Origin: Macrolepiota albuminosa | Lineage: Eukaryota > Basidiomycota > Agaricomycetes > Agaricales > Agaricaceae | Reading direction: 5' to 3' | Assembly (NCBI GenBank): GCA_027475525.1 | Contig: JAMWFC010000088.1 | Location: forward strand, 1,581,534 to 1,645,533 | Length of the DNA: 64,000 bases | Part shown: piece after piece, positions 9,026 to 64,000 of the stretch | Layout: each line of letters opens with the position of its first letter | Numbering within the stretch: position 1 is the first letter of the stretch | Notes under the pieces: generated by a model | What the model was told of the DNA's origin: nothing | Database searches by the model: none | What the model saw: only the letters and a program-made list of their open reading frames with translations | Translations under genes and position numbers: made by a program

Positions 9026-9064
9026 TGCGCGTAGCTTGACCTTATGTTCCTTGATCTCATGGAA

Positions 9065-9688: not shown

Positions 9689-9760
9689 GAAGTTGCCAAT
9701 ATAGTTTACAAGTCCAACAAATCGATGGATATCATTATATGTGCGTGGAGTATGCCACTC

Positions 9761-32151: not shown

Positions 32152-32883
32152 TGTCATGACCCCTCCCCTCCAGATCCACCCCGGGACACCCCTGGAACAC
32201 CATCCAGGACCCTCCCTCCGACCCCACAGGACACGCCCTGCCATCACGACTACTGACACTGCCATCACACGCATCAAGGGCCGCCATCAGCTGCCACCAG
32301 CCCCGATCAACGATCGGATCACGCAACTTGCTTCTGGCCATCACACATCATGCATCACAGCTCCCTCTGTGCCAATTGATCGTGCTCCCCACATGCGTGA
32401 TCCAAGTATACAGTCCCTGCCTGCTACTCAATGACTCCCGGAACCCATCCCAGACACCCCGGAACCCCAAGACCCGGTCCCGTAGTACTTATAGCGTAGT
32501 TCCCTGTTGTATTTGTTAGTCTTGATATTAACTTGAATTGTTGCGTGCTCTCTGCTTGACTGGTACGCACTGACTGGCACGCTTTGACTGGCATGCTTGA
32601 ATAATCGCGTGCTCTAAGTTTGGCATGCACTTTGTGACTTATAATTTGTTAACCTGGTCTCGTCTTAGAACCCCCGGTTCACGACTTGACCCCCACCCAA
32701 CCCTCAGCTACCCAAAACCCAAAACCCCCAGATCAAGTCCCCTCTCTCAGAATTACCCCTATCCACGTCTTGAACCCCGGAGTCCTAGCCCCGGAGTTCC
32801 AGACACCCAAGTATCTGTAGATCAAGTCTGCCTCGTAAGGGCGTTGCTTTCCCGGAAAGCCCCTGACTCAGCGGAACCTGACA
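32152..32883 (+). repeat. 5' LTR of element A
   Basis: 732 bp, starts TGTCATGACC and ends AACCTGACA, colinear with LTR B (54281-54999) with frequent C-to-T and G-to-A differences at CpG. Confidence 0.93.
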
Positions 32884-32916
32884 TAATATCAAGACTCCCT
32901 CTTTACACCATTCTTG

Positions 32917-35620
32917 ATGGCTACGTATACTCATACCTACTACCCTATGGGCTACCAGACTGACCCTTACGGGCACCCGGTCCCCGATCACTACTCTGCA
33001 CAGACTTCCCACCCTGCCTATCCACCTCTCCCATACGAACCCCAATACCTCCACCGCCACTGGGCCCCTGACCCATCTCTCTATGATCTGGGGCCCTCAG
33101 CTAGCTGGGCCCCTCCGCCCAATCTAGCCATGGCGCGACCCGTGGAGGTTCCCTCATACTGGAGCATCTCCGGGGGCCTGCCGGAGACACCACCAGTTTC
33201 CAGTGGACCTTGCCCGGTACCCCCCAGCAAGGGCCCCTTTGCACCCACCCCCTACTACGGTTACCAGCGCCCTGCCCCCCAACCCCGGGGACCTCTCAAC
33301 TATGACTATCCCCCTCGACACTACCCAACTGCTGCCCCACCCGCTCGGACTCCTCCCTCGCCAATGGGATGACGACGTCTCGAGGACTACGAACGGCAAT
33401 GGGACGAAGTGCTTCGCTCGCTCAGGATCTCGCTGGAGGACTTTGCGCAACGGGCAAGGGCGCTACTCATGGAATTTGGGCATGACGACTTTGCAGGCAC
33501 TCTGGAGGACTGGGCCCATTGCTTGGTCGAATTCGGGGATCGCCTCACACGAGGAGAACTCTCGGAGCAGACTATGGTAAAGTATAGATGCAACACGATC
33601 CTCCGCGAAGAATTGCAACAACTGCTCAACGAAGTCCACGTGTCCCCCTCCCCTTGACCCCTCAACGACCCTGCAGACCCAGGCCGCTCAATTCACATCC
33701 AGCGGGAACCCCCAGAACCGGCCCTGGCAGCCTCCGCGGTCTCCACTCCGGAGCAACAACAATGGGAAGAGCAACAAAACACCTCAGCCATACTATGGTC
33801 CCTCAACCCGACAGAAGGGCTATTTGATCAGCCCGCTGCCTGCACGGTAGGCTTGTCGACTCGCCGTAGGGCTAACTCTGTTCCTAGCACCTTCAAAACC
33901 TGGGGACAGACCTAGAGACCCCTGGAACCGCTCCAACAAATGGATAACACCCGACCCCCGCCTCTGACGACCTCCAGTAGACCCCGGGTGGACACCTCTA
34001 ACATGGATGACACGCTGTGCTATATTGACAAGCTCACGTGCAGCAACAACAAACAACGCCCTGCACCCATGCCCACAACTACCCCAGCACCGCCTCCCAC
34101 GTCAGCCCCGGCCCCTTCAGAGCCCAACTTCCGCTGCAACCCCCCGCCCCACTTCGACCTCCGGAACCCCCCGCAACCTCCTATGCAGGCGTGACCTTCC
34201 CAGGCTGAACGTCCCCCGCGCAACCTGGCACCCGACCCAGCACCCGACCCCCCTCAGGCCAACCTGACACCACTGAACCCTCCCTGGCTGCCTCCGCCAC
34301 CCCCAGCCAAACCTCGAGGACAACCCCCAGGCCCCCCACCTCCGCCACCCTCTGCGTGGAGACCTGGGCCTCCCCCCAGCAGGAACAAACCTCCCTGGGA
34401 CCACGGACCTCCTGGGCGCGGACCCCCAGGTGAGCCACCTGGAGGAGGCCCTCCAGGCAGGTGGGGTCCTGCCCTTGGTGCCTTTCCTCCACAAGAAGGG
34501 GGGGTAACCATTATTACTACTACTACAATGCCGGCCCCCCTCTCCGCAATGCTGCCGGACCGGACGATGCTCGCAACACCCTCACCTGCAAAGGATGCCT
34601 GGACATTCAAAAGCCTGATGCATTCACAGCCAGGACCCTTGAAAATGGCATACATTCCTCACCCAATGTCTTAACACGTTTCAGGCAAAGCCACTCACGT
34701 TCCAGGTTGACAGCTCCTGGGTGGCCTTTGCTGCCTCGTACCTCTGGATCGCCTTCGACCATTACATGGCCCTCATCCAGTTTGACCCCAACAACCTGGC
34801 GCTCTCTCGCTGGCAAGCCTTCGTCGACGAGTTCTCCAGGAAATTCGGGATCTACGACACCGTGGCTGAGGCCAAGGACAACCTCTTCAACCTCCGGATG
34901 CGCTCTGAAGAACGTTTCACCACCTTCATTGTACGTTTTGAAAAGGAAGCTTACGAGACAGGTTGGAATTACAGCGCCCTCCAGTATGGCCTCTGCCATG
35001 CCCTGCCGCAACGTATCAAGGACGTCCTCCGACTCGCCCCGAAACAACCCTCCTACGATGGATACAAGGCCCTCGTCATGCAGATTGACCAACGTTACTA
35101 GGAAGACCACAGCAAGTATTCGAACTCCTGACCCCCCTGGAACCCTAGGGGAGGACCCCCATGGCCCTCCGGCAAAACCCCCAACCCTCAAAATCGAAAC
35201 CCCGGTCCCCCTGCGTTCCCTGGCGGCCAACCCCCAGTGAGTTGCGGCCCACCCAATACTAACCCCGGCAGCAGCGCCCGCCCCCAGGCCCAACTCAACG
35301 CCGCTGTGGCCGCCCACAACTCGGGCGACATGCTAAGCCCCGAGGAACCCCCAGAAGACCCCGAAGACCTCGACTTTGCTGACAAATGGAACAAGGAGGC
35401 CCTCCGGGCCAACCGGCTTCAAAAGAAGGGACGACCCTGGATCAAAGTTCTGAAGGATGTGCAGGAACGACAAAGGAGGGAAGGTGTTTGCATACTCTGC
35501 GGTGAGAAAGACCATTTCATCTCCGAGTGTCCCCAACGACAGGTTATGGGATGCGCCACCTGGACCTTCGAAGGGGAGGACGCCACCTTCGAGTATTCGG
35601 AAAACGACCCAGCAATTTAG
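32917..35620 (+). pseudogene. Gag, element A
   Basis: It starts at the ATG 34 bp inside the LTR ([10 protein letters not shown], as in B) with a Tyr/Pro-rich N-terminus. A stop at 33370 (CGA to TGA against B) and others follow, with at least one frame change before 34,720. Conserved segments are the Pro-rich middle, the retrotransposon gag core (34,721-35,101, e.g. [14 protein letters not shown]) and the CX2CX4HX4C knuckle [14 protein letters not shown] (35,490-35,535). The tail ends ENDPAI. In this copy the knuckle frame is intact, and it shows what element B should read at 57,690. It overlaps pol by about 94 bp in the -1 frame. Confidence 0.88.
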
Positions 35621-38600
35621 ACCTGGAAGACACCTTAAATCGTGGAATCGACCCCGACGTCTTTTCTGCCCCAGTTTCCCATCTTTGCTCCACAACACTC
35701 GCACAAGACACCCTCACGGCTTACCTACCCTCCCACTCCTCGCACTTCCTCCTCCTCAAAACCCGCCTCACCCCTTCTGGAACCCCCCTCAACATCCTCG
35801 TCGACAGTGGCGCCACCAACAACTTCATCAACAAGGCATGGTCTACCTTCGCCCTGGAATCCGCTCAGCGACTCCCGGTCCCGGTGCGGCTCTGCCTCTT
35901 CGACGGAGACACCTCTACAGTGAGGGGACATCACTCACTTCGTGCGTATGCCCATTACTTTCGCCAACGGACAGACTCACACCCTCTGGATGTTGATAAC
36001 CAAACTCCACTCTTCCACACCCCTGGTCTTAGGGCTCCCATGGCTCCGAGACACCAACCCCCACATCGATTGGCGACATCTTACCCTTCGCCTGACCCGG
36101 GACCCAACACCCGACGACCAGCAACTCCCCTTTGACATCCCCCACTCTCCAAACCCTACTCCAAAGGATGGGCCCCCACCACCCCCTGGACTCCAGTCCC
36201 GCTCGTCCTGATCCTTCGTCATCAATGCCAGGCTGGACAGCGCCCCAGGACCGATATTGGCCCTCGACAGCGGAGCCACTGGAGGTTTCATCAGCGATGC
36301 CCTCGACCTTCCCCACGACTCCCTCGACCAGCCCCTCCACCTGCAATGCCTCGACGGCACCCCCTCCTCCTCCGGCCCCATCCAGGGGTCTCACTCGGGG
36401 TGCGTGACCCTGGACAACAACTACGAGTTCACCTCCAACTTCCTGGTCATACGACTTTACAAATCAACCCCGATGGTGCTGGGACTACCCTGGCTACGCA
36501 ACACGAACCCCGACATCGATTGGAGGATGCTCACCATGACCTTCCCAGAACTCAAAAACCACCCCTTGACCGCCGTGCACCTCTGGGCCCTGGGGAGCGA
36601 CCCAATGCCCGACACCCCTGGGACGACAGCCGCGCCCTCCACGCCTGTCTGAGCCCGCAAAGCCCCTGATCGACCCCCAAACATTCCTCGGAACAGGTAC
36701 AAAGGGCCGAACTACCTGGGCTGGTCTCAGACACACGTCACACCCGCTCCAGCCAATGCATCTGCGACCCCGATCGACCTGAACGCACTCGACATTAGGA
36801 TCATTGGAGCCGCCCCCTTCACCCGTCTCATGAAGGACGGAACCCCCACGTTTCAGCTACACACCTCGCCATCTCTCCTGGAAGAACACCTATGAGGGGA
36901 CGCTATCCCCCCAGAAAAGAAAACTGAGGAGCAGATCCTCTGAGAAGTAGTTTCCCCAGAGTATCACGAGTTCGCTGACGTATTCTCTGAAGGAGACGCC
37001 AAGGAGATTCCCCCTCACCGCCCTTATGACCATACTATTGACCTTGAGGAAGGAGCCGCCCCCCCTTTCGGCAAGGTGTACAACATGTCGGAGGTTGAAC
37101 TCCGGGCCCTCAAGGACTACCTCGATGAAATGCTCAGTAAGGGATTCATCTGACCCTCTGCCTCCGCTGCCGGAGCCCCGGTTCTATTCACCAAGAAGAA
37201 GGACGGTTTGCTCCAACTCTGCGTTGACTACTGGGGACTCAATAAGATCACCAAGAAGAACCGCTACCTGCTCCCGCTCATCGGCAATCTGGTCGATCGA
37301 CTCCGCAGTGCCAAGGTTTACACAAAAATAGACCTCTGCTCCAGCTACAACAATGTCCGCATCGCCCTGGGACATGAGTGGAAAACCGCATTCTGCACGC
37401 AGTATGGTTTGTTTGAGTACCTTGTGATGCCTTTCGGAATGACTAACTCCCCCGCCACGTTCCAATACTTCATGAATGACATCTTCCATGACATGAGTGA
37501 CGTTTTCGTGATCGTCTACTTGGACGACATCCTCATCTACTCCAACTCGAGGGAGGACCACCAGAAGCATGTCCGGCAGGTCCTGGAATGCCTCTGGGAG
37601 CACAACCTCCATGCCAAGCCCGAGAAGTGTTTATTCCACATGGACGAGGTTGAGTATCTCGGTGTCATCGTATCTCCGAATGGCATTTGCATGGACCCCC
37701 ACAAGGTCAAGGCCATCGTCAACTGGCCGCAACCTCGGAACATGAAGGAAGTACAATCCTTCTTGGGTTTCGCTAATTTCTACCGGAGGTTTATAGACAA
37801 CTACTCCAGTATCATGAAACTCCTCAACCGGCTCATACACAAAGACGTTGCCTGGACTGACAATGCTTTGTTTGCTGAACCCCATTGGAACTGGGACAGT
37901 AAGTGCCAGAGCGTCTTTAACCTGCTCAAGGAGGCTTTCACAGTCGCCCCTGTACTCCGGCACTACGACCCAGCCCTCCTGATTATCCTGGAATGCGATG
38001 CCTCTGACTACGTCATCGCCAGGGTTTTCTCGCAGATGGGATCTGACGGTGGGGAGCCCCAGCCAGTTGCCTTCTACACCCGGTCCATGATTGATGCCGA
38101 GCTCAACTACGACATCTATGATAAGGAACTCCTTGCCATTGTCGAAGCCTTCAAACAATGGCGAGCCTACCTCGAGAGAGCTCGGCACTGGATCCAGGTC
38201 TACTCGGATCACAACAATCTGCAGTACTTCACCACGACCAAGCAACTTAGTCAACGACAGGCCCGATAGTCCAAGATCCTCTCGGAATACGACTTCACGA
38301 TCCAGTACCGCCTGGGACGGCTGGGAGCTAAACCCAATGCCCTCACCTGACAACCGGACGTTTACCCCAAGAAGTCGTTTGAGGCAGAACGCAATGCGTT
38401 CAATCATCGCGTGGTGATCCCTCCTGAACATTTGAATGCCGTACTGATTTTAAACGACAAAGGGACCCTGAGCCAGATCCGCCGCGCCCCCCGAGACAAG
38501 TACTTCACCGACCACAACCCCCGCAACAGTCCCAATGGAACCGACTGGGACCCTGCCTTCTCCTTATCCCCTGACAAAAAACTCCTCCTCTGGAACAGCC

Positions 38601-39666
38601 GCATCTATGTCCCGGATCATGCCCGACTTTGCTACGACGTTCTGCGCCAACACCACAACCACAAGCTCCGGGGACACCCTGGGATACGTAAGACCCTCCA
38701 GCTTATCTCCCGGACTTACTTTTGGCCAGGGATGAAGAAGGATGTGACCCGCTACATTTGATTGTGCGAACCCTGCCTCCGGGCCCACTCTTTGTGTCCA
38801 AGTTCTGGACTTTCCTGTGTAAGGCCCTTGAAGTAAAGACTAACCTCTCCACTGCCTACCACCCCGAAACTGACGGTCAAACCAAAAGGGTCAATCAGTC
38901 TCTCGAGCAGTACCTCCGACTGTACGTCAACTACTTGCAGGACGACTGGCACACCGAGCTCCCCCTGGCTGAGTTCACCTACAACAACACGCCGCACTCA
39001 GCCACTGGGGTATCACCCTTCTTTGCCAACAAGGGATACCACCCCCAACTGACACTCTCGCTCTGGGACATCCCATCGCATGCCGCCCACGAGGTCGCCC
39101 AGGACCTCCAATCTCTTCACGAGTTCCTCTGGGAAGAGATTGACACCGCGAACCAGGCCTATGCAAAACACACCGACCGGAAATGAGAAGACACCCCCGA
39201 CTGGACCCCCAGGACAAAGGTATGGTTAGATCGACGCCACCTCCGCACCTGCCGGCCCTCCCCAAAACTCGATCACAAGCGTCTCGGCCCGTTCAAAATT
39301 TTGAAGAAAGTCTCATCCCACGCCTACAAGATCAAGCTCCCCCTGGGACTTAAAGGTCTGCACCCAGTATTCCACGTCTACCTCCTGGAATGACACCCCC
39401 CAGATCCCTTCCCTGAACGACGCCCTGAGCCCCCTCTCCCAGTCGAGGTCGAGGATGAGTACCACTACAAGGTTGAAGACATCCTCGACTCCCAGGACAT
39501 TTGTGGGTGACCCCACTTCCTTGTACGATGGAAGGGATACGGCCCAGAGGACAACACCTGGGAACTGCGTCAAAACCTCGAAGGCGCCCTCGACAAACTC
39601 TGAGACTTCCAGCAACAGCACCCAGAAAACAACCCTCCCGGGCGTAGGACCCACAGACGGCAGTAG
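35527..39666 (+). pseudogene. Pol (PR-PR-RT-RH-IN-chromodomain), element A
   Basis: Colinear with the intact pol of element B. First protease-like DSGATNNF at about 35,800, second DSGATGGF at about 36,265, RT with YLDDILIYS near 37,516, RNase H with ECDASD near 37,992, integrase zinc domain at 38,640-38,780, and chromodomain at about 39,455-39,570. At least ten TGA stops correspond to CGA in B (for example 36,210, 36,895, 37,154, 39,185, 39,393). Around 38,792 some 268 bp present in B (60,994-61,261) are missing, including both catalytic Asp codons of integrase. Element A has 33 bp near 37,855 that B lacks (an in-frame loss in B between two TGG codons). Confidence 0.92.
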
Positions 39667-39960
39667 TGGGCATAACCCCCGCCTCTGGGCTTAATAAAGA
39701 TTCAACTCCCATGTATATCTTCTGTTTCCCCTCTCTAACCCTTCGACACATTCCCGATGTTACTTACTTTAACTCCCACGTATATTTCCTGCTTCCCCCT
39801 AACTCTTCGACACGTTTCTGATATTACTTACTCACTCCCCTGGCTCCAAAAGACTAAGTATATACATTTTTTCTTATGACTACACTATCTACAGTACTGG
39901 GCCGGAACAAGAAACATAACAAACAAAAAAGAAAAAAAAGAAAACAGCAAGATGCCGCCC

Positions 39961-41676
39961 CTAACGCTGGGGCCCCAAACCGTGACTCCCCTTGCCCTCC
40001 CCTCCCCTTGGCCAACCCCGGAAATCCTCCCCCACCCTCTCTGGACCATGCTCCCGCCACACTTTCTTGGCCAGCAGATTCCAGGATGGGAGGGGCTTGC
40101 CCTCATCCAACACGTGCTCGAACCAGGACCCCGGGGCGGGCATGTTCCTCCGCTGGTATGCGACCACCAGTCGCCCCAGGAGGTCGAGACCGCGCTCCAC
40201 CCTGGGGGTTGTCACCTCTGGGCACTGCCCCTCCTGCAGCGCAGCGAGTGCCGTGGCAGCCCCATCCAGGAGCAGACGGTGCTCCTGGGCCCAGCTTGGA
40301 GACGTTAGCAAAAGAGGTGAGCAAGTGACAGGGGACTCACTCAGAGATGCCATGCACGCGATCACCACATTGTGGCGCAGCCCCTTTGTCAACTCCTGTT
40401 CCAAGAGGACCCCCTCCAGGATCCCCACTCCCTGCCCCAGCCTCGCCCACAACGCCTCCAGCTCCGCCTCCACCTCCCCCCAAGCGACTCAGGCCTCCTC
40501 CAACTGCCGAAGCGCCTCCTGACCCGCCTCCAACTCTCTCCGCACATCGGCCTCCCCCCTACCCTCCTCGGACTCCCCCGGACGCTCCTGAAAGACCCTC
40601 ATGTCCGCTCCCAGGGGCCGCCCTGACAGAGGCGAGAACACTGCTGGGGAGAGATGTGGGGGGAAAACCGGGGGCAGGGTCCCAGAGGGCAAACGTGCCC
40701 TCTTGGAGGGCCCCAGGGAGGGGCTAGGCGACGCCTGCCGTTTCCCCTTATTAGGGCGCCCCTCACGTCCCTCCCGCCCTTGGGTGCCGGACCGGGTCAC
40801 CTGACATGTGATCAAGACCATGGGCCGGCCCCAGCTGCCCACCTGGACAACCCCCCGTCCTCCCGCCCCACCTCCAGGGGCCTCCCGGGGCGCCTCCTCC
40901 TGGACCTCAGCCCCCTGGCGACCCAATCCCTCTCCTCTACCCCCATCCTCTGGGTGATGCCTCCTAACAGCCAACCCTGCTCCCGTGAAATGCAGTATGC
41001 CCTCCAAAGGGCCAAAACGGAGCATCGCTCATAATTGAGGCGACAGGCCTCACACACGGAAGTATCGTGCTGGGATGAGATGGACAGGGCCTTGAACGAA
41101 CACGCCACCATGCGACGTGCGCAGTGAAGACACTAGGCATCCAGGTTAGCCACGGAACCAGAGGTACAAAACTACTTACTGGCCCGTTGCTAACACACCA
41201 GGCATGAGGAGGCAAGCCCCGAGGCCTCACCAATGCCCCCTCAAAGGCCTCCTGCGTCACGCTGGCCCACACAACGCAATGAATCTCTGGGACCTCAGAA
41301 ATGGCTCCCACCGCCATCCCAGAACAGCGGAAACGAGGGGCGACCAGTCTAGAACGAGGAGGGGGAGGGGGATGGGGGGGACGCACGGTCATCCATGCAA
41401 AGGTGGGCGTGGGATGGCTGGGGCCTGACCCTGAAGGACCCACGGGAGCCAGCTGGGACCCGCTTCCAGGACAGGATTATTGAGTTGTTCTGGAAAAGGA
41501 AGGTCAGTTGAGATAAGCGGACGACACGGGAAGCACTCACGTTGCTGGGCAAGCGCCGCCATGCACTCCTGGTTGAGGCGAGCTCGGTACCGCACATCCC
41601 GGGCTTCCCAGGCCATGAGGGGCGCGACCTCGTTAGTATGTGGAGGCGTCAGGGAATGCGTTGGCGTACGCGACAT
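39961..41676 (-). pseudogene. Antisense Zn2Cys6/coiled-coil gene, element A copy
   Basis: Convergent to pol, starting at ATG 41676 only 128 bp from the 3' LTR. First exon 41676-41541 (donor GTGAGT). An intron at about 41,173-41,130 (GTAAGT...CTAAC...CTAG) is followed at once by the Cys cluster. A third intron lies at about 40,353-40,305. The cluster reads CX2CX6CX15CX2CX6C, identical in spacing to element B. The last acceptor is CAA in place of the CAG of B, and the exon 1-2 join is out of frame, so this copy is dead. Cys spacing, intron positions and the WFE(H/R)VLDEG C-terminal block are shared with B, which shows the gene was once functional and element-borne. Confidence 0.78.
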
Positions 41677-41803
41677 GGTTGAGTTTGATGGTAAAATTTT
41701 TTTCGATACGTGGCAAGTCAGATGCCAGATCCCACGATTGGACCCCAGTCTGAACCACCAGCTACGCACGCCTCGGAGGGTCTCGGTGCTGAGGGGGGGG
41801 TGA

Positions 41804-42500
41804 TGTCACGACCCCTCCCCTCCGGATCCACCCTGGGACACCCCTGGAACACCATCCGGGACCCTCCCTCTGACTCCACAGAACACGCCCCGCCATCACA
41901 CGCATCAAGGGCCGCCATCAGCCGCCACCAGCCCCAATCAACGATCGGATCACGCAACTTGCTTCTGGCCATCACGCATCATGCATCACAGCTCCCTCTG
42001 CGCCAATTGATCGCGCTCCCCACATACGTGATCCAAGTATACAGTCCCTGCCTGCTACTCAATGACTCCCAGAACCCATCCCAGACACCCTGGAACCCCA
42101 AGACCTGGTCCCGTAGTACTTATAGCGTAGTTTCCTGTTGTATTCGCTAGTCTTAATATTAACTTGAATTGTTGCGTGCCCTCTGCTTGACTGGTATGCA
42201 CTGACTGGCACGCTTGAATAATCGCGTGCTCTAAGTTTGGTACGCACTCCGCGACTTATAATTTGTTAACCCGGTCTCGTCTTAGAACCCCTGGTTCATG
42301 ACTCGACCCCCACCCAACCCTCAGCTACCCGAAACCCAAAACCCCCGGATCAAGTCCCCTTTCCCAGGATTACCCCTGTCTGCGTCTTGAACCCCGGAGT
42401 CCTAGCCCCGGAGTTTCAGACACCCGAGTATCTGTAGATCAAGTCCGCCTCGTAAGGGTGTTGCTTTCCCAGAAAGCCCCCGACTCAGCAGAACCTGACA
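41804..42500 (+). repeat. 3' LTR of element A
   Basis: 697 bp, TGTCACGACC...AACCTGACA, preceded by a G-run polypurine tract and followed by the CCCAC target duplication. Confidence 0.93.
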
Positions 42501-52171: not shown

Positions 52172-53136
52172 TGCTCCTCTTTTCTGCTATCTCTGCTGAG
52201 TAATTAATCAATTTTTTTATGTTAAAGGATTATACTTTTATTTTCTATATATCTATATTTTAAGTTGTTTTTTTTTCTGTATTGAGTGCATTATTGTTTT
52301 TTTCTTTTACCAAGTTGAGAGATTCTGTTTTTTTTTCATATATATATGTATGTTTTTTGAATAAGTGTATATGTTTTTTTTTGAATAAGTGTATTTTTTG
52401 AATATGTAATTTGTTTCATGTTGTTAAATGCCTTGTTTATTATTGTAATTTATTACATCTAGTACCTAGAAAGAGGAGCATACATGAAAATTGTACAATT
52501 ATGTGAAACTTGTTTATTATTGTAATTTATTACATCTAGTACCTAGAAAGAGGAGCATACATGAAAATTGTACAATTATGTGAAAATTTTTTTTTTGCTC
52601 TAGCAGTCATTATTCTGTTCTCTTTATTTATTTTCATCTTTGAAAATTGGACCACATTGTCTTTGGTATTCATAGAACTTTTTGAATTATTTTTTCTATA
52701 AGCTTGTATAGATCCAGTTTTCTGTCTAATAGAATATGCTTATATAAGCTAATACTCCATCAATAGTTTATGTAAGCTGTTGCTCCAGCAATCTATAGTA
52801 TATGGGACGACCGTTTTGTGGGAATGATTGATTAGTCAGTTTTGACAGTTTCTGACTAAGGCTGACAAATACTTGCCTTTTTCGTTTGTTTTTCGGTCAG
52901 TTTTTCAGTAGAAAAGAAAAAAAACAGATATTATTCAATGAAAAAGAGTGTATAATAAATATTTAAATGTACAATATCTCTCGGACACATGTGGAAGGTA
53001 TTCGGAGTGTGTGAATGTGGCCGAGGCCAAAACGCGATTTAGTGGACACCAGTTTTCACGCCTCGCATGATCTTAAACCAAACAGCATCAATTTTTCCAC
53101 GGTTTCAACGTTGTAGTGAGTAAACTACACTACAAA
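52172..53136. other. AT-rich intergenic DNA
   Basis: T-runs and TATATA stretches, with no gene. It contains the fifth 77-bp duplication. Confidence 0.6.
52432..52585. repeat. Exact 77-bp tandem duplication (5)
   Basis: Copies at 52432-52508 and 52509-52585 are identical over exactly 77 bases. This is the only one of the six outside a recognised retrotransposon. Confidence 0.97.
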
Positions 53137-54280: not shown

Positions 54281-54999
54281 TGTCACGACCCCTTCCCTCC
54301 GGGCCCACCCCGGGACACCCCCGGAACACCCTCCGGGACCCTCCCTCCGACCCCACAAGACACGCCCCGCCATCACGACCGCCGGCACCGCCATCACGCG
54401 CATCAAGGACCGCCATCAGCCACCACCAGCCCCGATCAACGATCCCATCACGCATCACGGCTCCACCCGCGCCAATTGATCGCGCGGCCCACACGCGCGA
54501 TCCCGGTATACAGTCCCTGCCCGCTACTCAATGGCCCCCGGAACTCATCCTAGACACCCCGGAACCCCGAGACACGTTCCCGTAGTACTTATAGCCTAGC
54601 CCCCCACTGTATTCGCTAGTCTTGATATTACATACTTTGCATAACTGTTACTTGGATATTGCGTGCCCTCTGTTTGACTGGTACGCCTCGTTTGGTACGC
54701 TTCGACCGGCACACCTTAGTATTCGCGTGCTATAAGTTTGGTACGCACTTTGCGACTCTTAAGTTACTAACTTGGTCTCGTCTTAGAACCTCCGGTTCAC
54801 GACTCGACCCCCTCTAACTCCCAGCCACTCTCATCCAAAACCCCCGGACTCTAGTCCCCTCTCCCGGGATTACCCTGTCCTCGTCTTGAACCCCGGAGTC
54901 CTAGCCCCGGAGTTCCAGACACCCGAGTATCCGTAGATCAAGTCCGCATCGTAAGGGCGTCGCTTTCCCGGAAAGCCCCCGATTCAGCGGAACCTGACA
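54281..54999 (+). repeat. 5' LTR of element B
   Basis: 719 bp, TGTCACGACC...AACCTGACA. Inside are GTAGTACTTATAG (a possible core promoter region) and four related GGTACGC(A/C)(C/T)-type repeats at 54,680-54,750. Confidence 0.93.
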
Positions 55000-55032
55000 T
55001 AATATCAAGACTCTCTCCTTACACCGTTCTTG

Positions 55033-57835
55033 ATGGCTACGTATACTCACACTTACTACCCCACCGGGTACCAGACCGACCCTTACGGACGCCCGGTACC
55101 CGAGCACTACTCCGCGCAGACCCCCCGCCCCGTCTACCCACCCCTCCCGTACGAACCTCAGTATCTCCACCGCCACTGGGCCCCCGACCCGTCCCTCTAC
55201 GACCTGGGGCCCTCAGCCAGCTGGGCCCCCCCGCCCAACTTAGCCATGGCACGACCCGTGGAGGTCCCCTCGTACCGGAGCATCCCCGGGGGCCTGCCGG
55301 AAACCCCACCTGTGCCCAGTGGACCTCGCCCGGTTCCCCCCAGCGAGGGCCCCTTTGCACCCACCCCCTACTACGGTTATCAGCGCCCCGTCCCCCAACC
55401 CCGAGAACCCCGAGGACCTCCCTACCCCGACTACCCCCCTCGTCATTACCCGGCCGCCGCTCCGCCCGCTCGAACCCCTCCCTCACCAATGGGACGACGA
55501 CGCCTCGAGGAATATGAACGGCAACGGGACGAGGTACTCCGCTCCCTCAGGATCTCGCCAGAGGACTTCGCGCAACGGACACGGATGCTGCTCGTGGAAT
55601 TCGGACACGACGACTTCGAAGGCACTCCGGAGGAATGGGCTCACTGCCTGGTCGAATTCGGGGATCGCCTCACGCGAGGAGAACTCCCGGAGCAAACCAT
55701 GGTAAAGTATAGGCGCAATACGATCCTCCGGGAAGAATTACAGCAACTGCTCGATGAAGTCCACGCGTCCCCCTCCCCTCGGCCCCTCAACGACCCCGCG
55801 GACCCAGGTCGCTCGATTCACATTCGACGGGAACCCCCGGAATCGGCCCCAGCAGTCCCGGCAGCCCCCACGGTCCCCACTCCGGAGCAACGACAACGGG
55901 AAGAACGGCAGAACGCCTCAGCCATATTACGGTCCCTCAACCCGACTGGAGGCCTCTTCGATCAACCCGCTGCCCGCACGGTAGGCTTGTCAACTCGCCG
56001 CAGGGCTAACTCCGTTCCTAGTACCTTCGAGACCTGGGGACAGCCTCAGCGACCCCTGGAACCCCTCCCGCGAACAGACAACGCCCGACCCCCGGCCCCG
56101 ACGAACCCCGGTACAGCCCGGGTGGACACCCCTAGTACGGACGACACGTTATGCTACATTGACGAGCTCACGCGCGATAACAACGAACAACGTCCCGCGC
56201 CCGCGCCCGCCCTGGCACCAGCACCGCCCGCCACGTCCGCCCCGGCCCCTCCGGAACGCAACTTCCGCCGCGATCCGCCACCCCACTTCGACCTACGGAA
56301 CCCCCCGCGACCCCCGATGCAAGCCCGACCCTCCCGGAATGAACGTCCCCCGCGCAACCCGGCACCCGACCCAGCACCTAACCCCCCTCCGCCCGACCCG
56401 ACACCGCCGAACCCTCCCCGACCGCCTCCGCCACCCCCAGCTGAACCTCGAGGACGGCCCCCAGGCCCTCCACCTCCGCCACTCCCGGCGTGGAGACCCG
56501 GCCCCCCTCCTGGCAGGAACGAACCCCCTTGGGACAACGGGCCTCCCGGGCGTGGTCCCCCAGGTGAGCCGCCCGGAGGAGGACCTCCCGGCGGGTGGGG
56601 CCCCGCCCTTGGTGCTTTTCCTCCTCAAGGAGGGGGGGGTAATCATTACTACTACTATTACAACGCTGGCCCCCCTCCCCGTAACGCTGCCGGACCGGAC
56701 GACGCTCGCGACGCCCTCGCCCGCGAAGGACGCCTAGACATTCAGAAACCTGATGCGTTCACGGGCCGGGACCCCCGGAAATGGCGTACCTTCCTCACTC
56801 AGTGTCTTAATACGTTTCAGGCAAAGCCGCTCACGTTTCAGGTTGACAGCTCCCGGGTGGCCTTTGCCGCGTCGTATCTCCAGGGGATCGCCTTCGATCA
56901 CTACACGGCCCTCATCCAGTTCGACCCCAACAACCCGGCACTCGCTCGCTGGCAAGCCTTCGTCGACGAGTTCTCCGGGAAATTCGGGATATACGACACC
57001 GTGGCCGAGGCCGAGGACAACCTCTTCAACCTCCGGATGCGCTCTGAAGAACGTTTCACTACCTTCATCGTACGTTTTGAAAAGGAAGCTTACGAGACAG
57101 GTTGGAATTACAGCGCCCTCCGGTACGCCCTCCGCCGCGCCCTCCCACAACGTATCAAGGACGTCCTCCGACTCGCCCCGAAACAACCCTCCTACGACGG
57201 ATACAAGGCCCTCGTCATGCAGATCGACCAGCGCTACTGGGAAGACCGCAGCGAGTATTCGAACTCCCGACCCCCCTGGAACCCTAGAGGAGGACCCCCT
57301 TGGCCCTCCGGCGAAGCTCCCAACCCCCAAGGTCGAAACCCCGGTCCCCCCGCGTTCCCTGGCGGCCGACCCCCGGTGAGTCGCGGCCCGCCCAATGCTA
57401 ACCCCGGCAGCGGCACCCGCCCCCAGGCCCAGCTCAACGCCGCCGTGGCCACCCAAGACCCGGGCGACGCGCCAAGCCCCGAGGAACCCCCGGGAGACCC
57501 CGAAGACTTCGACTTCGACGACGAACGGGACGAGGAGGCCCTCCGAGCCAACCGGCTTCAAAAGAAGGGACAACCCTGGATCGAGGTCCCTTCGACGACG
57601 AACGGGACGAGGAGGCCCTCCGAGCCAACCGGCTTCAAAAGAAGGGACAACCCTGGATCGAGGTCCCGACGGATGTGCAGGAACGACGGAGAAGGGGGGC
57701 GTCTGCATACTCTGTGGTGAGAAAGATCACTTCATCTCCGAGTGCCCCAAACGACAGGTCATGGGACGTGCCACCTGGACCTTCGAGGGGGAGGACGCTA
57801 CCTACGAGTATTCGGAAAACGACCCGGCGATTTAG
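55033..57835 (+). CDS. Gag, element B (two frame breaks, at least one probably artificial)
   Basis: ATG at 55033 ([10 protein letters not shown]), 34 bp inside the LTR. A Tyr/Pro-rich N-terminus is followed by a helical segment (about 160-250), a long Pro/Arg-rich stretch with Gly-Pro repeats, the gag core (about 580-740: [34 protein letters not shown]) and a CX2CX4HX4C zinc knuckle at about 57,710-57,752. The frame is broken by the 77-bp duplication at 57513-57667 and then by one missing base in the G run at about 57,691-57,696, where element A has an extra base. It ends ENDPAI-TAG at 57835. Pol lies in the -1 frame relative to this last segment, as in A, with about 94 bp overlap. Confidence 0.85.
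57513..57667. repeat. Exact 77-bp tandem duplication (6)
   Basis: Copies at 57513-57589 and 57590-57666 (match runs one base further) lie in gag of element B and shift the frame. Element A has a single copy at the matching place (about 35,370-35,450). Confidence 0.97.
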
Positions 57836-60800
57836 ACCCGGAAGACGCCCTAAATCGCGGAATCGACCCCGACGTCTTCTCCGCCCCGGTCTCACACCTT
57901 CGCTCTACGACACTCATACAGGACACCCTCACGGCTTACCTACCCTCCCACTCTTCGCACTCCCTCCTCCTCAAAACCCGCCTCACCCCCTCCGGAACTC
58001 CCCTCAACACCCTCGTCGACAGTGGCGCCACCGACAACTTCATCGACGAAGCATGGTCTACCCTCGCCCCGGAACCCGCCCAGCGACTCCCGGTCCCGGT
58101 ACGACTCTGCCTCTTTGATGGAGACGCCTCTTCGGCGGGGGACATCACCCACTTCGTGCGTATGCCCGTTACCTTCGCCAACGGACAGACTCACACCCTC
58201 CGGATGCTGGTGACCAAACTTCACCCTTCCGCACCCCTGGTCCTAGGGCTCCCGTGGCTCCGAGACACCAACCCCCGCATCGATTGGCGACACCTCACCC
58301 TTCGCCTGACCCGGGACCCGACCCCCGACGACCAGCAACTCCCCTTCGACATCCCCCACTCCTCAAAACCAACCCCGAAGGACCCCCCGGACGAGCCCCC
58401 ACCACCCCCCGGACTCCAGTCCCGCTCGTCCCGATCCTTCGTCATCAATGCCAGGCTGGACGGCGCCCCGGGACCGATATCGGCCCTTATCGACAGCGGA
58501 GCCACCGGAGTATTCATCAGCGACGCTCTCGACCTCCCCCACGACTCCCTCGACCAGCCCCTCCGCCTGCAACGCCTCGACGGCACCCCCTCCTCCTCCG
58601 GCCCCATCAAAAGGTCTCACTCGGGACGCGTGACCCTGGACAACAACTACGAGTTCACTTCCGACTTCCTGGTCACGCGACTTCACGACTCGACCCCAAT
58701 GGTGCTGGGGCTGCCCTGGCTGCGCGACACGAACCCCGACATCGATTGGAGGACGCTCACCATGACCTTCCCGGGATCCGAAGACCACCCCTCGACCGCC
58801 GTGCACCTCCGAGCCCTAGGAGGCGACCCGACGCCCGACACCCCCGGGACGACTGCCGCGCCCCCCGCGCATGCCTCACCCACGCCCGTCCGAGACCTCA
58901 AGGCCCCTGATCGACCCCCAAACATTCCTCGGAACAAGTACAAAGGGCCGAACTACCCCTGCCGGTCTCAGACACGCGTCACACCCGCTCCGGCCGATGC
59001 CTCCGCGACCCCGACCGACCCGAGCGCACTCGACATCAAGATCATTGGGGCCGCCCCCTTCGCCCGCCTCATGAGGGATGGGACTCCCACGTTTCAGCTG
59101 CACACCTCGCCTTCTCTCCCGGAAGAACACCTACGAGGGGACGCCATTCCCCCGGAACAGAAAACCGAGGAGCAAATCCTCCGAGAAGTAGTTCCCCCGG
59201 AGTATCACGAGTTCGCTGACGTATTCTCCGAAGGAGACGCCAAGGAGATCCCCCCTCACCGCCCCTATGATCACACCATCGACCTCGAGGAAGGAGCCAC
59301 CCCCCCTTTCGGCAAGGTCTACAACATGTCGGAGGTCGAACTCCGGGCTCTCAAGGACTACCTCGACGAAATGCTCGGTAAGGGATTCATCCGACCCTCC
59401 GCCTCCGCCGCCGGAGCCCCGGTTCTATTCGCCAAGAAGAAGGACGGCTCGCTCCGACTCTGTGTCGACTACCGGGGACTCAACAAGGTCACCAAGAAGA
59501 ACCGCTACCCGCTCCCGCTCATCGGCGATCTGGTCGATCGACTCCGCAGTGCCAAGGTCTACACGAAGATCGACCTCCGCTCCGGTTACAACAACGTCCG
59601 CATCGCCCCGGGACACGAGTGGAAAACCACGTTCCGCACGCGGTATGGTCTGTTTGAGTACCTCGTAATGCCTTTCGGAATGACTAACTCCCCCGCCACG
59701 TTCCAATACTTCATGAACGACATCTTCCACGACATGAGCGACGTCTTCGTGATAGTCTACCTGGACGACATCCTCATCTATTCCGACTCGAAGGAGGATC
59801 ACCAGAAGCACGTCCGGCAAGTCCTCGAACGCCTCCGGGAGCACAACCTCCACGCCAAACCCGAGAAGTGTTCGTTCCACACGGAAGAGGTCGAGTATCT
59901 TGGCGTCATCGTATCCCCGAGTGGCGTTCGCATGGACCCCCATAAGGTCGAGGCTATCGTCAACTGGCCGCAGCCCCGGAACGTGAAGGAAGTACAGTCC
60001 TTCCTGGGTTTCGCTAACTTCTACCGGAGGTTTATAGACAACTACTCCGGGATTACGAAACCCCTCAACCGGCTCACGCGCAAGGACATCGCCTGGAACT
60101 GGGACAGTAAGTGCCAGAGCGTCTTTAACTTGCTCAAGGAGGCTTTCACAGTCGCCCCGGTACTCCGGCACTACGACCCGGCCCTCCCGATCATCCTGGA
60201 ATGTGACGCGTCCGACTACGCCATCGCCGGGATCCTCTCACAGATGGAGCCTGACGGTGGGGAGCCCCGGCCAGTCGCTTTCTACACCCGGTCCATGATC
60301 GACGCCGAGCTCAACTACGACATCTACGACAAGGAGCTCCTCGCCATCGTCGAAGCCTTCAAGCAGTGGCGAGCCTACCTCGAGGGAGCCCGACACCGGA
60401 TTCAGATCTACTCGGATCACAACAACCTGCAGTACTTCACCACGACCAAACAGCTTAGTCGACGGCAGGCCCGATGGTCCGAGATCCTCTCGGAATACGA
60501 CTTCACGATCCAGTACCGCCCGGGACGCCTTGGCGCCAAGCCCGATGCCCTCACCCGTCGACCGGACGTCTACCCCAAGAAGTCGTTCGAGGCGGAACGT
60601 AATGCATTCAATCATCGCGTGGTAATCCCTCCCGAACATTTGAATGCCTTACTGATCTTAAACGAGGAAGGGACCCTGAGTCAGATTCGCCGCGCCCCCC
60701 GAGACAAGTACTTCACCGATCACGACCCCCGCAACCCCCCTGATGGAACCGACCGGGACCCCGCCTTCTCCCTGTCCCCCGACGAAAAACTCCTCCTCCG

Positions 60801-62142
60801 GGACGGCCGCATCTACGTCCCGGATCACGCCCGACTTCGCTACGACGTCCTCCGTCAACACCACGACCACAAGCTCCGGGGACATCCTGGAATACGTAAG
60901 ACCCTCCAGCTCATCTCCCGGACTTACTTTTGGCCAGGGCTGAAGAAGGACGTGACCCGTTACATTCGATCATGCGAGCCCTGCCTCCGGGCCAAGGTCC
61001 CCCGACACCGACCGTACGGACTCCTGAAACCCCTGCCGGTCGGACGACGCCCCTGGTCCTCAATATCTCTGGACCACATCGTCGAGCTCCCGGAATCTGA
61101 AGGGTTCGATGCCATTCTCGTCGTTGTGTGCAGGCTAACCAAACAGGGCATCTTCCTACCCTGCCACACCACGGATACCGCCCCGGACTTCGCCCGGCTG
61201 TTCCTCGAGCACGTCTTCGCCAAGCATGGTCTCCCGGACGACATCGTCTCCGACCGGGGCCCCCTCTTCGTGTCCAAGTTTTGGACTTCCCTGTGTAAGG
61301 CACTTGAAGTAAAGACTAACCTCTCTACCGCCTACCACCCCGAAACCGACGGCCAAACCGAAAGGGTCAACCAGTCCCTCGAGCAGTACCTCCGACTGTA
61401 CGTCAACTACTTGCAGGACGACTGGCGCGCCGAGCTCCCCCTGGCCGAGTTCACCTACAACAACACGCCGCACTCTGCCACCGGGGTATCCCCTTTCTTT
61501 GCCAACAAGGGATACCACCCTCGACTGACGCTCTCGCTCCGGGACATCCCGTCGCACGCCGCCCACGAGGTCGCCCGGGATCTCCAATCCCTTCATGAGT
61601 TTCTCCGAGAAGAGATCGACATCGCGAACCGGGCCTACGTGAAACACGCCGACCGGAAACGAGAAGACACCCCCGACTGGGCCCCCGGGACAAAGGTATG
61701 GTTAGATCGGCGACACCTCCGCACCCGCCGGCCCTCTCCAAAACTCGATCACAAGCGTCTCGGCCCGTTCAAAATATTGAAGAAGGTCTCATCCCACGCC
61801 TACAAGATCGAGCTCCCCCCGGGGCTAAAAGGTCTGCACCCGGTATTCCACGTCCGCCTCCTGGAACGACACCCCCCGGATCCCTTCCCTGAACGACGCC
61901 CCGAGCCCCCTCCCCCGGTCGAGGTCGAGGACGAGTACCACTACGAGGTTGAAGACATCCTCGACTCCCGGAACATTCGTGGACGACCCCACTTCCTCGT
62001 ACGGTGGAAGGGATACGGCCCGGAAGACGACACTTGGGAACCAAGCCGAAACCTCGAAGGCGCCCTCGACAAACTCCGGGACTTCCAACAGCGGCGCCTG
62101 GGGAACGATCCTCCCGGGCGCAGGAATCACAGACGGCAGTAG
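57742..62142 (+). CDS. Pol polyprotein with tandem protease domains and chromodomain, element B
   Basis: An uninterrupted frame of about 1,466 codons. The listed start is a GTG inside gag, so expression is probably by frameshifting from gag. Domains: first retropepsin-like (DSGAT at 93-97, [17 protein letters not shown]), second retropepsin-like (DSGAT at about 251, [17 protein letters not shown]), RT with YLDD at 673-676, RNase H with ECDASD near 820, and integrase zinc domain from about 1040. The integrase core has Asp 1111, Asp 1171 and Glu 1207 (D,D-35-E). The GPY region ends [13 protein letters not shown], and a C-terminal chromodomain (about 1395-1455) follows with [16 protein letters not shown] and TWEP. 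All catalytic residues are present, so this copy may be active. Chromodomains guide integration to modified nucleosomes in known chromoviruses. Confidence 0.96.
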
Positions 62143-62405
62143 TGGGCGTAACCCCCGCCTCTGGGCTCAGTAGGGATTCAACTCCCATGTTTATTTTCTG
62201 CTTTCCCTTCCTAGATCTTACTCCCTTTTAGTACTTTCTTCACAGTACCGCCCCGGATTCTGGGCAAGGTACACTTCCTTGTTTTTCTTGCTACTTTACT
62301 CCCATCATTAGAAACACGACGGTCAAATATGTACATTTTCTAGAACTACATATTTTTACAGTGACAGGTCACAAAAACGGACAGACGACAGGAAAACGGA
62401 GACCC
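62143..62405. other. Spacer between convergent pol and antisense gene, element B
   Basis: 263 bp AT-richer than both neighbours. It contains the end of both convergent transcripts, and AATAAA-like signals are not clear. The equivalent spacer in A is 39,667-39,960, with AATAAAG at about 39,692. Confidence 0.5.
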
Positions 62406-64000
62406 CTAGAGCTGGGGCCCCGGGCTACCCCCACCCTCCCCACCCTCGCCCCCACTGGATCTCGGCCAACCCCGGGGCTCCTCCGTCTCCCGCTCCCCCG
62501 GAACGTACCCTCGCGACGCCTCCTCCATCAACTGACCCCAGGACGGGAGCGGCTCGCCCTCGTCCAGGACCCTCTCGAACCAGGTCCCCGGCGCCGGGAC
62601 GTTCCTCCGCCGGTGCGCCGAGATCAACCTACCCAACAGGTCCAGCCCGCGCTCCACCCCGGGGGTCGACAGTTCGGCCCGCTGGCCCTCCTGTAGCGAG
62701 GCCAACGCCGCAGCCGCCCCGTCCAGGAGCAGGCGGTGCTCCCGGGCCCAACCTGGAGAATCAGTGCGGAACTCGGGAAGGGGACTGACACCACTCACTC
62801 AAGGCCGCCATCCGGGCAACGACCACGTTTTGCAGACTCTGGGGCGCCGGCTCCGGATGACCCACCCCCTGCTCCAGCCGGGCCCGCAGCGCGTCCCGCT
62901 CGGCCTCCAACGCCCCCCGTGCGGCCCTAACCTCCTGCAACTCCCGAACTACCGCCCCCCGGTCCTCCTCCACCCACCGCCGAGCCGCCGCCTCTTGCCT
63001 CACGGCCTCCTCGCTCCGGGCCAGGGTCGTACGAACTCCTCGTAGGTGCTCGGCCGTGACCTGATGGCGGTCGGCCATCTCCCCTCTCTCCCGCTCGGCC
63101 CGGTCCGCGCGCTCCTGCAACGCCGCCACGTCGACAGCCAACGGCCGCCCCGACAAGGGGGAAAACACGGCCGGGGACAAACGAGGGGGCGGGGTCGGAG
63201 AGGGCACCTCCCGGGAGAGTCGCGGCCGCTTGGAGGGCCCGGGAGAGGGGCTGGGCAACGCCCGCCGCTTTCCCTTATCGGCGCGACCCTCTCCGCTCGC
63301 CCCGGCCCGGGTCACCCGGCGCGTGACCAGGACCACGGGCCGGCCCCGACTCCCCACCCCCGCCGCCCCCCTGACCCGAGACCCCCTCGCAGGGGCCCCC
63401 TCTCCCCCGGAACCCTCCGACGCTCCTACCGGCGGCTCGACCACCCAGTCCCTCTCTTCCACCCCCATCCGGCGCGTCAAACCCCCCAACGGCCACCCCT
63501 GCTCCAGCGCCATGCAACGCGCCCTCCATAAAGCGGAAACGGAGCAGCGCTCGTGGTTTTCGCGACACGCCTCGCACACCGACGAATCCCTCCGGGACGA
63601 CGGGCTGGGGGCCTCGAATAGACACGGCACCACCCGGCGAGCGCAGTGTACGCACTAAGTCGACATTAGCGGTGAACACGAGGTACGAGGTCACTTACCG
63701 GCCCGTTGCTAACGCACCACGCATGGGTGGGCAAGCCCCGGGGCCTCTCAAGGGCCTGCTCGAACGCGGCTTGCGACACGGCCGCCCACGGGATGCGCAG
63801 ACCCTCCGGAACAATCGATACGGTACCGGGGGCCATCCCCGACCGGCGAAAACGAGGGGCGGTTAAGCGAGGACGAGGTGAGGGAGGAGGGCGGGGGGGG
63901 CGGACAGTCATCCGCGCGACAGTAGGCGCAGAACGACTGGGACCCGCCTGAGGGGCTCCCGCGGGAACCGACGGCGGGGGACTGACCGGTGCCTCCGGGG
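62406..64000 (-). CDS. Antisense spliced gene: Zn2Cys6-type cluster plus coiled coil, element B (5' end outside)
   Basis: Three exons are visible: from beyond 64000 to 63699, 63654-62799 and 62752-62406, joined by introns of 44 and 46 bp (GTAAGT...TTAG and GTGAGT...CCAG), phases consistent, about 500 codons in view. The middle exon opens exactly at the first Cys of CX2CX6CX15CX2CX6C (CVHCARRVVPC...CEACRENHERC), the spacing of fungal Zn2Cys6 DNA-binding clusters. Next come a Gly/Arg-rich linker, a basic NLS-like patch (KGKRR...SKRPRL), a Glu/Arg/Ala heptad region of about 90 residues predicted as coiled coil, and a conserved C-terminal segment (WAREHRLLLDG, WFERVLDEG). It lies between pol and the expected 3' LTR. 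A nuclear DNA-binding or regulatory role is inferred, not shown. Confidence 0.78.

What the first reader, a model, noticed from the sequence alone, without database searches (positions are those of the whole stretch)
62406..64000. Chromovirus carries an antisense, spliced gene for a Zn2Cys6-type zinc cluster protein
Element B has, opposite in sense to gag-pol and downstream of it, an intron-containing gene whose Cys spacing CX2CX6CX15CX2CX6C fits the fungal Zn2Cys6 family. It is followed by an NLS-like basic patch and a long coiled coil (a dimerisation region, as in Gal4-type factors). The cluster starts exactly at an exon border. Extra antisense frames are known in some plant Gypsy lineages, but a retrotransposon-encoded, transcription-factor-like antisense protein in a fungus is not something I can name. 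It could control the element's own LTR or silencing, or act as antisense control of pol.
Basis: partly seen in the sequence, partly recalled or inferred. Interest (0 to 1): 0.88.

Follow-up and report, generated by a model that had tools for sequence, protein, structure and literature searches.

The report
Exchangeable antisense gene in mushroom retrotransposons
A family of fungal jumping genes carries, on the opposite strand, a real intron-containing gene for a probable nuclear regulatory protein, and different versions of this gene have been exchanged between otherwise very similar elements.

Summary
The element is a complete chromovirus insertion (719-bp LTRs, 3 mismatches; 5-bp target duplication). 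Between pol and the 3' LTR lies an antisense four-exon gene for 564 aa; the window ends inside its exon 2. Both stated junctions are exact. The gene is real: 12 of 20 fetched near copies keep the frame, donors are GT in 59 of 60 and acceptors AG in 60 of 60 introns, dN/dS is 0.16-0.20 between two intact subfamilies, and eight conserved cysteines are Cys in 20 of 20. Distant homologues occur in Termitomyces. Zn2Cys6 membership is not supported: Pfam Zn_clus matches 62 places in this genome, none of them a listed copy of this gene. New: the gene is an island of divergence. Elements whose gag-pol is mostly 94-99% identical (LTR 89-96%) carry versions only 72-74% identical, with synonymous divergence 2-9 times that of pol, still under purifying selection; one exchanged and one mosaic example were found. 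Antisense genes in this position are known in plants and in fungal Boty (brtn). Best reading: a self-encoded nuclear regulator, exchanged as a cassette. The function is inferred.

The parts
54281..54999 (+). 5' LTR of the element (719 bp); the 3' LTR lies at window-equivalent 64373-65091, beyond the window end (L009 3407-4125)
   Evidence: Pair with 3 mismatches; GAATG on both sides
55030..57720 (+). gag reading frame (contains the 77-bp duplication 57513-57666, a likely assembly artefact)
   Evidence: ORF list and repeat list; 85-100% identical per 150-bp block in L034, L029 and L040 where the blocks align
57742..62142 (+). pol: protease, RT, RNase H, integrase, chromodomain
   Evidence: Pfam RVT_1 4e-42, RT_RNaseH, Integrase_H2C2, Chromo 2e-13
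63699..64000 (-). antisense gene, part of exon 2 inside the window (exon 2 is 64054-63699; intron 1 64106-64055; exon 1 64242-64107 with ATG; all beyond 64000, read in L009)
   Evidence: splice sites kept in copies
63655..63698 (-). intron 2 (44 nt, GTAAGT...TAG)
   Evidence: matching place in L029, L034, L039, L040
62799..63654 (-). exon 3: Cys/His motif, linker, NLS-like patch, helical charged region
63544..63654 (-). Cys/His motif C165-x2-C-x6-C-x15-C-x2-C-x3-H-x2-C201 (a further conserved C159 is in exon 2 at 63714-63716)
   Evidence: Cys in 20 of 20 near copies, His in 19 of 20; invariant or nearly so in 14 aligned sequences chosen for having the motif
63214..63270 (-). bipartite NLS-like stretch KRRALPSPSPGPSKRPRLS, residues 293-311
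   Evidence: also in L034 and L029, not in L041; a loose version in 16 of 40 Termitomyces proteins
62869..63120 (-). Glu/Arg/Ala/Leu-rich, P/G-poor region, residues 343-426, possible coiled coil; lies beyond the mosaic breakpoint near residue 314
   Evidence: filter met in L009 only, of four proteins; sub-threshold Pfam match to ATG16, E 1e-4; L034 vs L039 break
62753..62798 (-). intron 3 (46 nt, GTGAGT...CAG)
62406..62752 (-). exon 4 with the conserved 'WAREHRLLLDG...HRRRN...' C-terminal region and stop codon TAG
   Evidence: conserved in aligned Termitomyces homologues
62143..62405 (.). intergenic stretch between pol stop and antisense stop; crossover region (in L012 identity to L009 falls from 100% to 86% about 89 bp beyond the antisense stop)
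54679..54746 (+). three exact TGGYACGC repeats in the LTR; candidate cis site. All 7 exact matches in the 64-kb window lie in LTRs of this family
   Evidence: 2.85 expected by shuffling, 3 of 100 shuffles reach 7; alignment; LTR coordinates
39979..41676 (-). second, older copy of the same antisense gene, inside an older element of the family (LTRs 32152-32883 and 41804-42500, 88.8% identical)
   Evidence: tblastn matches of 47-72% identity in several frames; pol 35527-39663

Best explanation
What it is (shown): an accessory protein-coding gene of a chromovirus family, antisense to gag-pol, starting next to the 3' LTR, with three introns and under protein-level purifying selection. Because its introns lie on the strand opposite to the genomic RNA, they are not removed from the RNA that is reverse transcribed, which explains how a retrotransposon can keep an intron-bearing gene (follows from established biology). 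How it evolves (shown): different, old versions of the gene sit on very similar gag-pol-LTR backbones and have been exchanged as a cassette; in one pair (L034/L039) the two versions differ only from the start of the helical region onward. How it works (inferred): the protein binds zinc through the Cys/His motif, enters the nucleus, possibly dimerises through the helical region, and acts in trans on the element's LTR, with the repeated TGGYACGC boxes as candidate target, to adjust expression of element copies, more likely as a self-limiting modulator than as an activator. A new version could then escape control by resident copies. Reality of the gene and of exchange: about 0.93. Nuclear regulator of the element, either sign: about 0.5. 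Repressor rather than activator: about 0.3 against 0.2. (Confidence lowered from 0.55 to 0.5 on re-check because the coiled-coil evidence holds for L009 only.)
For: Four-exon 564-aa model with good splice sites; 12 of 20 near copies intact, splice sites kept; dN/dS 0.160-0.195 for 8 A-by-B pairs; third-position excess and 3n indels. Divergent subfamilies: of 8 loci modelled, 5 gave full-length four-exon frames, 4 of them with introns in clearly matching places. Cassette: antisense dS / pol dS is 2.2-9.4 in all 10 pairs of L009, L014, L029, L034, L040; gag, pol and most of the LTR stay high while the gene drops to about 70%; LTR 95.5% but cassette 73.8% for L009 vs L039; L012 has the L009 cassette (99.3%) with another pol (93.0% to L009, 95.4% to L022); L034 and L039 are 96-100% identical per block over about 315 codons and then 67-78%; pol data reject two cassette groups and cassette data reject a pol group (AU p 2.6e-107, 0.006, 2.2e-7). 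Regulator: Cys/His motif conserved; bipartite NLS-like stretch in 3 of 4 proteins tested and no strongly hydrophobic segment; LTR-restricted TGGYACGC repeats; an antisense TATA-like site kept in 11 of 11 main-type LTRs aligned.
Against: No RNA data: expression and splicing are unproven. No structure: the prediction tool was off. No match to a known DNA-binding family. LTRs do not change in step with cassette type: L039 and L040 share 95.5% and 92.5% of the LTR with L009 although their cassettes are 73.8% and 71.9% identical. TGGYACGC was chosen after viewing the alignment, LTR copies are not independent, and 3 of 100 shuffles reach its window count. The sense TATA-like site is CTATAAG in 6 and CTCTAAG in 5 of 11 main-type LTRs. 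My filter for a long P/G-poor charged stretch was met by L009 only of four proteins. L036-type relatives lie in a repeat in which no match to this pol was found, so the gene may have a life apart from these elements. The NLS pattern was found in 16 of 40 Termitomyces proteins and not in L041; a loose Cys/His pattern matched 15 of 40. In L012 part of the LTR (278 bp) is 97.8% identical to L009, so exchange on that side is less clear than on the pol side.
Confidence: 0.5

Rival explanations
1. Anti-silencing or activating factor (VANC-like; the opposite sign within the nuclear-regulator reading): the protein relieves host silencing of the element rather than restraining it; versions diverge in an arms race.
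For: TE-encoded sequence-specific anti-silencing proteins with repeated targets exist (VANC, PMC5735166, abstract). Old diverse versions on similar backbones; repeated LTR boxes. Older copies look CpG-decayed (by eye, not quantified), which would fit host methylation (inference).
Against: VANC targets vary considerably between related TEs (same abstract), whereas here the LTR boxes are nearly the same across the main cassette types. Whole-gene dN/dS is well below 1; site-wise positive selection was not tested.
Confidence: 0.2
2. Post-transcriptional accessory factor: acts on particles, nuclear import of the integration complex or on Gag, not on LTR transcription.
For: The plant aORF review raises such roles (PMC7264820, section 7). 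The conserved C-terminal region could bind proteins.
Against: Gag is similar between the three cassette types compared with L009, so a Gag partner does not co-vary; NLS-like stretch and Cys motif point to the nucleus.
Confidence: 0.15
3. True Zn2Cys6 transcription factor captured from the host (compatible with the regulator reading).
For: Cys spacing CX2CX6C-x15-CX2CX6C; local hhalign probability 91 against 15 host Zn clusters.
Against: PF00172 gives 62 matches in this genome, none at a copy listed; no Zn_clus hit at E up to 10 for the protein; in hhalign 23 columns align, in a shifted register, and global mode gives probability 34; third Cys is Ser in P0002 and the second is Tyr in P0015.
Confidence: 0.12
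4. The function lies in the antisense RNA (dsRNA, siRNA), the protein being incidental.
For: Antisense RNAs of retroelements can feed silencing (PMC7264820, passage). The antisense transcript could overlap the 3' part of the sense RNA (inference).
Against: Protein-level constraint: dN/dS 0.16-0.29 between main subfamilies, 3n indels, Cys codons kept in 20 of 20 copies.
Confidence: 0.06
5. Passenger host gene, or an artefact in which divergent cassettes are made by mis-assembly.
For: The assembly has many 77-78-bp tandem duplications that look like k-mer overlaps. L036-type relatives without a detected pol.
Against: Same gene in more than 100 listed places of the genome (219 matches, 136 of 1186 candidates scored), in both elements of this family in the window, and homologues in five Termitomyces strains; one cassette type recurs in 8 places with identical score.
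Confidence: 0.05

Closest known systems
Plant Gypsy elements with antisense aORF between pol and 3' LTR (Grande gene23, RIRE2, Retand TRP28; PMC7264820 passages and section 7, PMC11963269 passages)
   Same: Same place and orientation; nuclear or DNA-binding role proposed; own antisense promoter reported for Grande gene23
   Different: No TRP28/PF04195 hit here; here a chromovirus of a fungus, three introns, Cys/His motif, cassette exchange
Boty-like element of Botrytis cinerea with antisense gene brtn (Zhao et al. 2011, seen only as title/citation in PMC7264820 and PMC8365987)
   Same: Fungal LTR element with an added antisense gene
   Different: Not compared by sequence; splicing, Cys motif and exchange unknown to me
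HTLV-1 HBZ (PMC3736048, PMC3185765: starts of abstracts in a search listing)
   Same: Antisense gene read from the 3' LTR; HBZ is a bZIP factor that counters activation of the virus (works like)
   Different: bZIP instead of a Cys motif; no homology claimed
Ty1 copy number control, p22 (PMC7055915, abstract)
   Same: Self-encoded control factor; subfamilies differ in the control-related gene through transfer and recombination
   Different: Derived from Gag and acting on particles, not an antisense nuclear protein
VANC anti-silencing proteins of VANDAL transposons (PMC5735166, abstract)
   Same: TE-encoded regulator with repeated targets; related proteins affect different TEs
   Different: Plant elements; there targets vary with the protein, here the LTR does not vary in step

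Membership tests
Chromovirus (Ty3/Gypsy with chromodomain) | RT-RNase H-integrase-chromodomain in one pol, flanked by LTRs and TSD | tested here: met
   Pfam hits; LTR pair and TSD GAATG
[quoted passage not shown]
   20 of 20 fetched near copies have the region between an LTR and pol; 12 of 20 with intact frame
Zn2Cys6 (Pfam PF00172) | Detected by the family profile | tested here: not met
   No hit (E up to 10); none of 62 genome matches is at a copy listed or 22
Zn2Cys6 (Pfam PF00172) | CX2CX6C-x5..12-CX2CX6..8C spacing (recalled) | tested here: inconclusive
   Both half motifs fit, linker is 15; two homologues lack one Cys
Zn2Cys6 (Pfam PF00172) | Two zinc ions bound by six Cys; DNA contact by the basic loop | not testable with these tools
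   Structure prediction switched off
Retand TRP28 antisense protein | Transposase_28 domain PF04195 | tested here: not met
   Absent from the Pfam result at E up to 10
Boty brtn | Sequence homology to BRTN | not tested
   No sequence at hand

The most novel reading that the evidence does not exclude
The antisense gene is an exchangeable self-control cassette of a retrotransposon, comparable to the immunity region of temperate phages (recalled analogy): several old versions are kept on one shared kind of gag-pol-LTR backbone within a single fungal genome because a copy with a rare version escapes control by resident copies, and swapping of the helical and C-terminal part within the gene creates new specificities.
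Probability: 0.2. Interest if true: 0.9.

Novelty: new variant of a known kind. Interest (0 to 1): 0.72.

Why it matters
Antisense accessory genes of LTR elements have no established function in the papers read here. This family offers intact, coexisting versions on very similar backbones, a natural swap experiment that makes function testable with ordinary reporter and binding assays. It also shows how orientation lets a retrotransposon carry introns, and it adds a protein family that Pfam and NCBIfam do not recognise above their cut-offs and that appears in Termitomyces records as 'hypothetical protein'.

Tried and rejected
Zn2Cys6 membership was tested with Pfam, a genome-wide PF00172 search and hhalign, and is not adopted. 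Pfam gave one sub-threshold coiled-coil match (ATG16, E 1e-4); NCBIfam, given 6 proteins, only matches far below cut-off; solved structures nothing below E = 1.1. An Env-like reading is rejected: the highest 19-residue hydropathy is 0.76-1.16 in four proteins. Strict LTR-cassette co-evolution was tested and not found. Low pol divergence through synonymous constraint alone is rejected because the non-coding LTR is also conserved and pol of L041 has dS near 1. The L036 relatives were examined for a pol by ORF list and by tblastn with this pol in 21.8 kb; a Pfam scan of that stretch failed and was not repeated, so another kind of pol is not excluded. Literature searches (open-access library only) listed no paper whose title or abstract start describes this gene; most hits were seen only as listings.

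Full report
Setting. The window lies at C73:1581534-1645533 of a 100-Mb genome in 129 contigs. Several PF00172 matches come in pairs with equal scores, so two nuclei may have been assembled, and some 'copies' may be alleles.

The element. LTRs 54281-54999 and 64373-65091 (719 bp, 3 mismatches) are flanked by GAATG on both sides. Pol (57742-62142) has RT, RNase H, integrase and a chromodomain. An older element of the same family lies at about 32152-42500 with LTRs 88.8% identical and the same antisense gene on the minus strand. Two other Gypsy-like pol regions (93-2872 and 7574-10324, pieces 34-47% identical) have no detectable antisense relative nearby.

The gene. Reading beyond the window (L009) gives four exons: 64242-64107, 64054-63699, 63654-62799, 62752-62406, for 564 aa. 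From the 53 match segments I fetched 20 loci, mostly the best ones; in all 20 the region lies within 80 bp of an LTR match and next to pol. Spliced frames projected from the alignment are intact in 12 of 20; 8 are broken; donors are GT in 59 of 60 and acceptors AG in 60 of 60. Among 7 intact copies (21 pairs) dN/dS is 0.16-0.42; the 8 pairs between subfamily A (L009, L012) and B (L014, L015, L020, L022) give 0.160-0.195; higher values are for recent pairs and for pairs with the decaying L024. Codon-position counts, 3n indels (five intact copies tested) and lower identity of introns 2 and 3 (70-82%) with splice sites kept agree with coding; intron 1 is 90-98% identical and is not informative.

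Breadth. A six-frame search with exon 3 gives 219 matches with 136 of 1186 candidates scored, a lower bound. Eight further loci of divergent subfamilies were modelled by script: five gave full-length frames (L029, L034, L039, L040, L041), three did not (L035, L037, L038); in L041 the script's introns 2 and 3 look doubtful. In 8 of the 9 loci tested pol follows on the other strand; the exception is L036, whose repeat shows no match to this pol in 21.8 kb.

Protein. Conserved: W-C159, C165-x2-C-x6-C-x15-C-x2-C-x3-H-x2-C201, C211, a bipartite NLS-like stretch, a charged helical region in L009, and a C-terminal 'WAREHRLLLDG...HRRRN' region. The eight Cys examined are Cys in 20 of 20 near copies and H198 is His in 19 of 20. 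A loose Cys/His pattern matched 15 of the 40 Termitomyces proteins; the others include partial proteins and were not examined one by one. In an alignment of 12 of these 15 with two exon-3 translations of this genome (one lacking the first Cys through its reference) the motif is invariant or nearly so. P0002 has Ser for the third Cys and P0015 Tyr for the second; P0005 lacks most of the motif. No Pfam or NCBIfam model matches above its cut-off. The profile comparison with host Zn clusters aligned C159, C165, C168 and C175 with the second half of Zn_clus (23 columns, probability 91 locally, 34 globally): a resemblance, not membership.

Cassette. Between L009 and L034, gag and pol are mostly 90-100% identical per 150-bp block (lowest gag block 0.85), the antisense gene 64-81%, the LTR 85-97%. 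L009 shares 89-96% of the LTR with L029, L034, L039 and L040 but only 72-74% of the cassette. For L009, L014, L029, L034 and L040 (10 pairs) antisense dS is 0.32-1.03 and pol dS 0.10-0.16, ratio 2.2-9.4, with antisense dN/dS 0.18-0.25. I left out of this count L024 (decayed pol), L039 (109 pol codons) and L041 (pol dS 0.95-1.2, antisense dS 1.4-1.5, near saturation); their values are in the same call. L012 carries cassette A at 99.3%, but its pol is 93.0% to L009 and 95.4% to L022, and the change of identity lies about 89 bp beyond the antisense stop; its LTR is about 92% identical to L009 over 529 bp and 97.8% over 278 bp, so the second crossover is less clear. L034 and L039 are 96-100% identical per block over about 315 codons and then fall to 67-78%. 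On 25 loci (three of 28 had too little pol) the pol tree is poorly resolved (3 of 21 inner branches starred, bootstrap not settled), yet pol rejects the 18-row cassette clade (p 2.6e-107) and the five-row cassette-A clade (p 0.006), and the cassette data reject a pol clade (p 2.2e-7). These groups were taken from the other partition's tree, not named beforehand. The simplest account is template switching or recombination between co-resident elements (inference).

LTR. The alignment shows repeated TGG(T/C)ACGC-like boxes in every type except L041. All 7 exact matches in the window are in LTRs (2.85 expected, 3 of 100 shuffles reach 7); L034 has 3 (0.21 expected). I chose the motif after seeing the alignment. 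An antisense TATA-like site lies at 64685 and is kept in 11 of 11 main-type LTRs, whereas the sense TATA-like site at 64823 reads CTATAAG in 6 and CTCTAAG in 5 of them; promoter function is inference.

Mechanism. Position, NLS-like stretch and Cys/His motif suggest a nuclear protein; the helical region suggests, for L009, a dimer. HBZ of HTLV-1 is an antisense factor from the 3' LTR that counters viral activation (PMC3736048, PMC3185765: starts of abstracts only). Ty1 copy number control shows self-encoded restriction with subfamily turnover by recombination (PMC7055915, abstract). VANC is the opposite precedent, anti-silencing (PMC5735166, abstract). The lack of LTR co-variation is the main fact against a simple repressor-operator pair; it would fit better if partner choice, not the DNA site, differs between versions (inference).

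Known or new. Antisense aORFs in this place are known in plants and proposed to be regulatory (PMC7264820 and PMC11963269, passages). One fungal case, Boty brtn, is cited there and in PMC8365987; I did not see that paper. PMC2864245 (passages) lists an additional ORF of unknown function among fungal elements in a figure legend, without orientation; in PMC3248453 the word antisense does not occur. My searches listed no paper that describes, in title or abstract start, a spliced antisense gene with exchange of versions, but the library lacks most subscription journals.

Noticed in passing
window 52432-52585 and 57513-57666; C27:384200-406000 (L043, L036, L042): Exact or nearly exact tandem duplications of 77-78 bp recur at unrelated places, one of them in the gag frame of this element. 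The length equals a common assembly k-mer (recalled), so they look like assembly artefacts rather than biology.
   Followed up: partly
L036 (C27:392200-398000) and L044 (C86:185000-194900): A more distant relative of the antisense gene (39-46% identical by piece) lies in a repeat of about 6.5 kb in which no match to this pol was found: a non-autonomous element, another carrier, or a multicopy host gene.
   Followed up: partly
window 32152-42500: Older element of the same family (LTRs 88.8% identical, pol in several frames) also carrying the antisense gene at 39979-41676 (-).
   Followed up: partly
L024, L026-L028: Older copies show, by eye, many Arg to Trp/Gln/Cys changes as expected from C-to-T change at CpG, which suggests methylation-linked decay; not quantified.
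   Followed up: no
C27:384200-386902 (L043 1-2703, - strand): A 901-residue open frame that resembles a Helitron helicase-like protein (recalled resemblance, not searched), some kilobases from the L036-type repeat.
   Followed up: no
L041 (C88:1049000-1054800): A deeper lineage of the family (pol 84% identical at protein level) with a full-length antisense frame but an LTR that does not align well (48%).
   Followed up: partly
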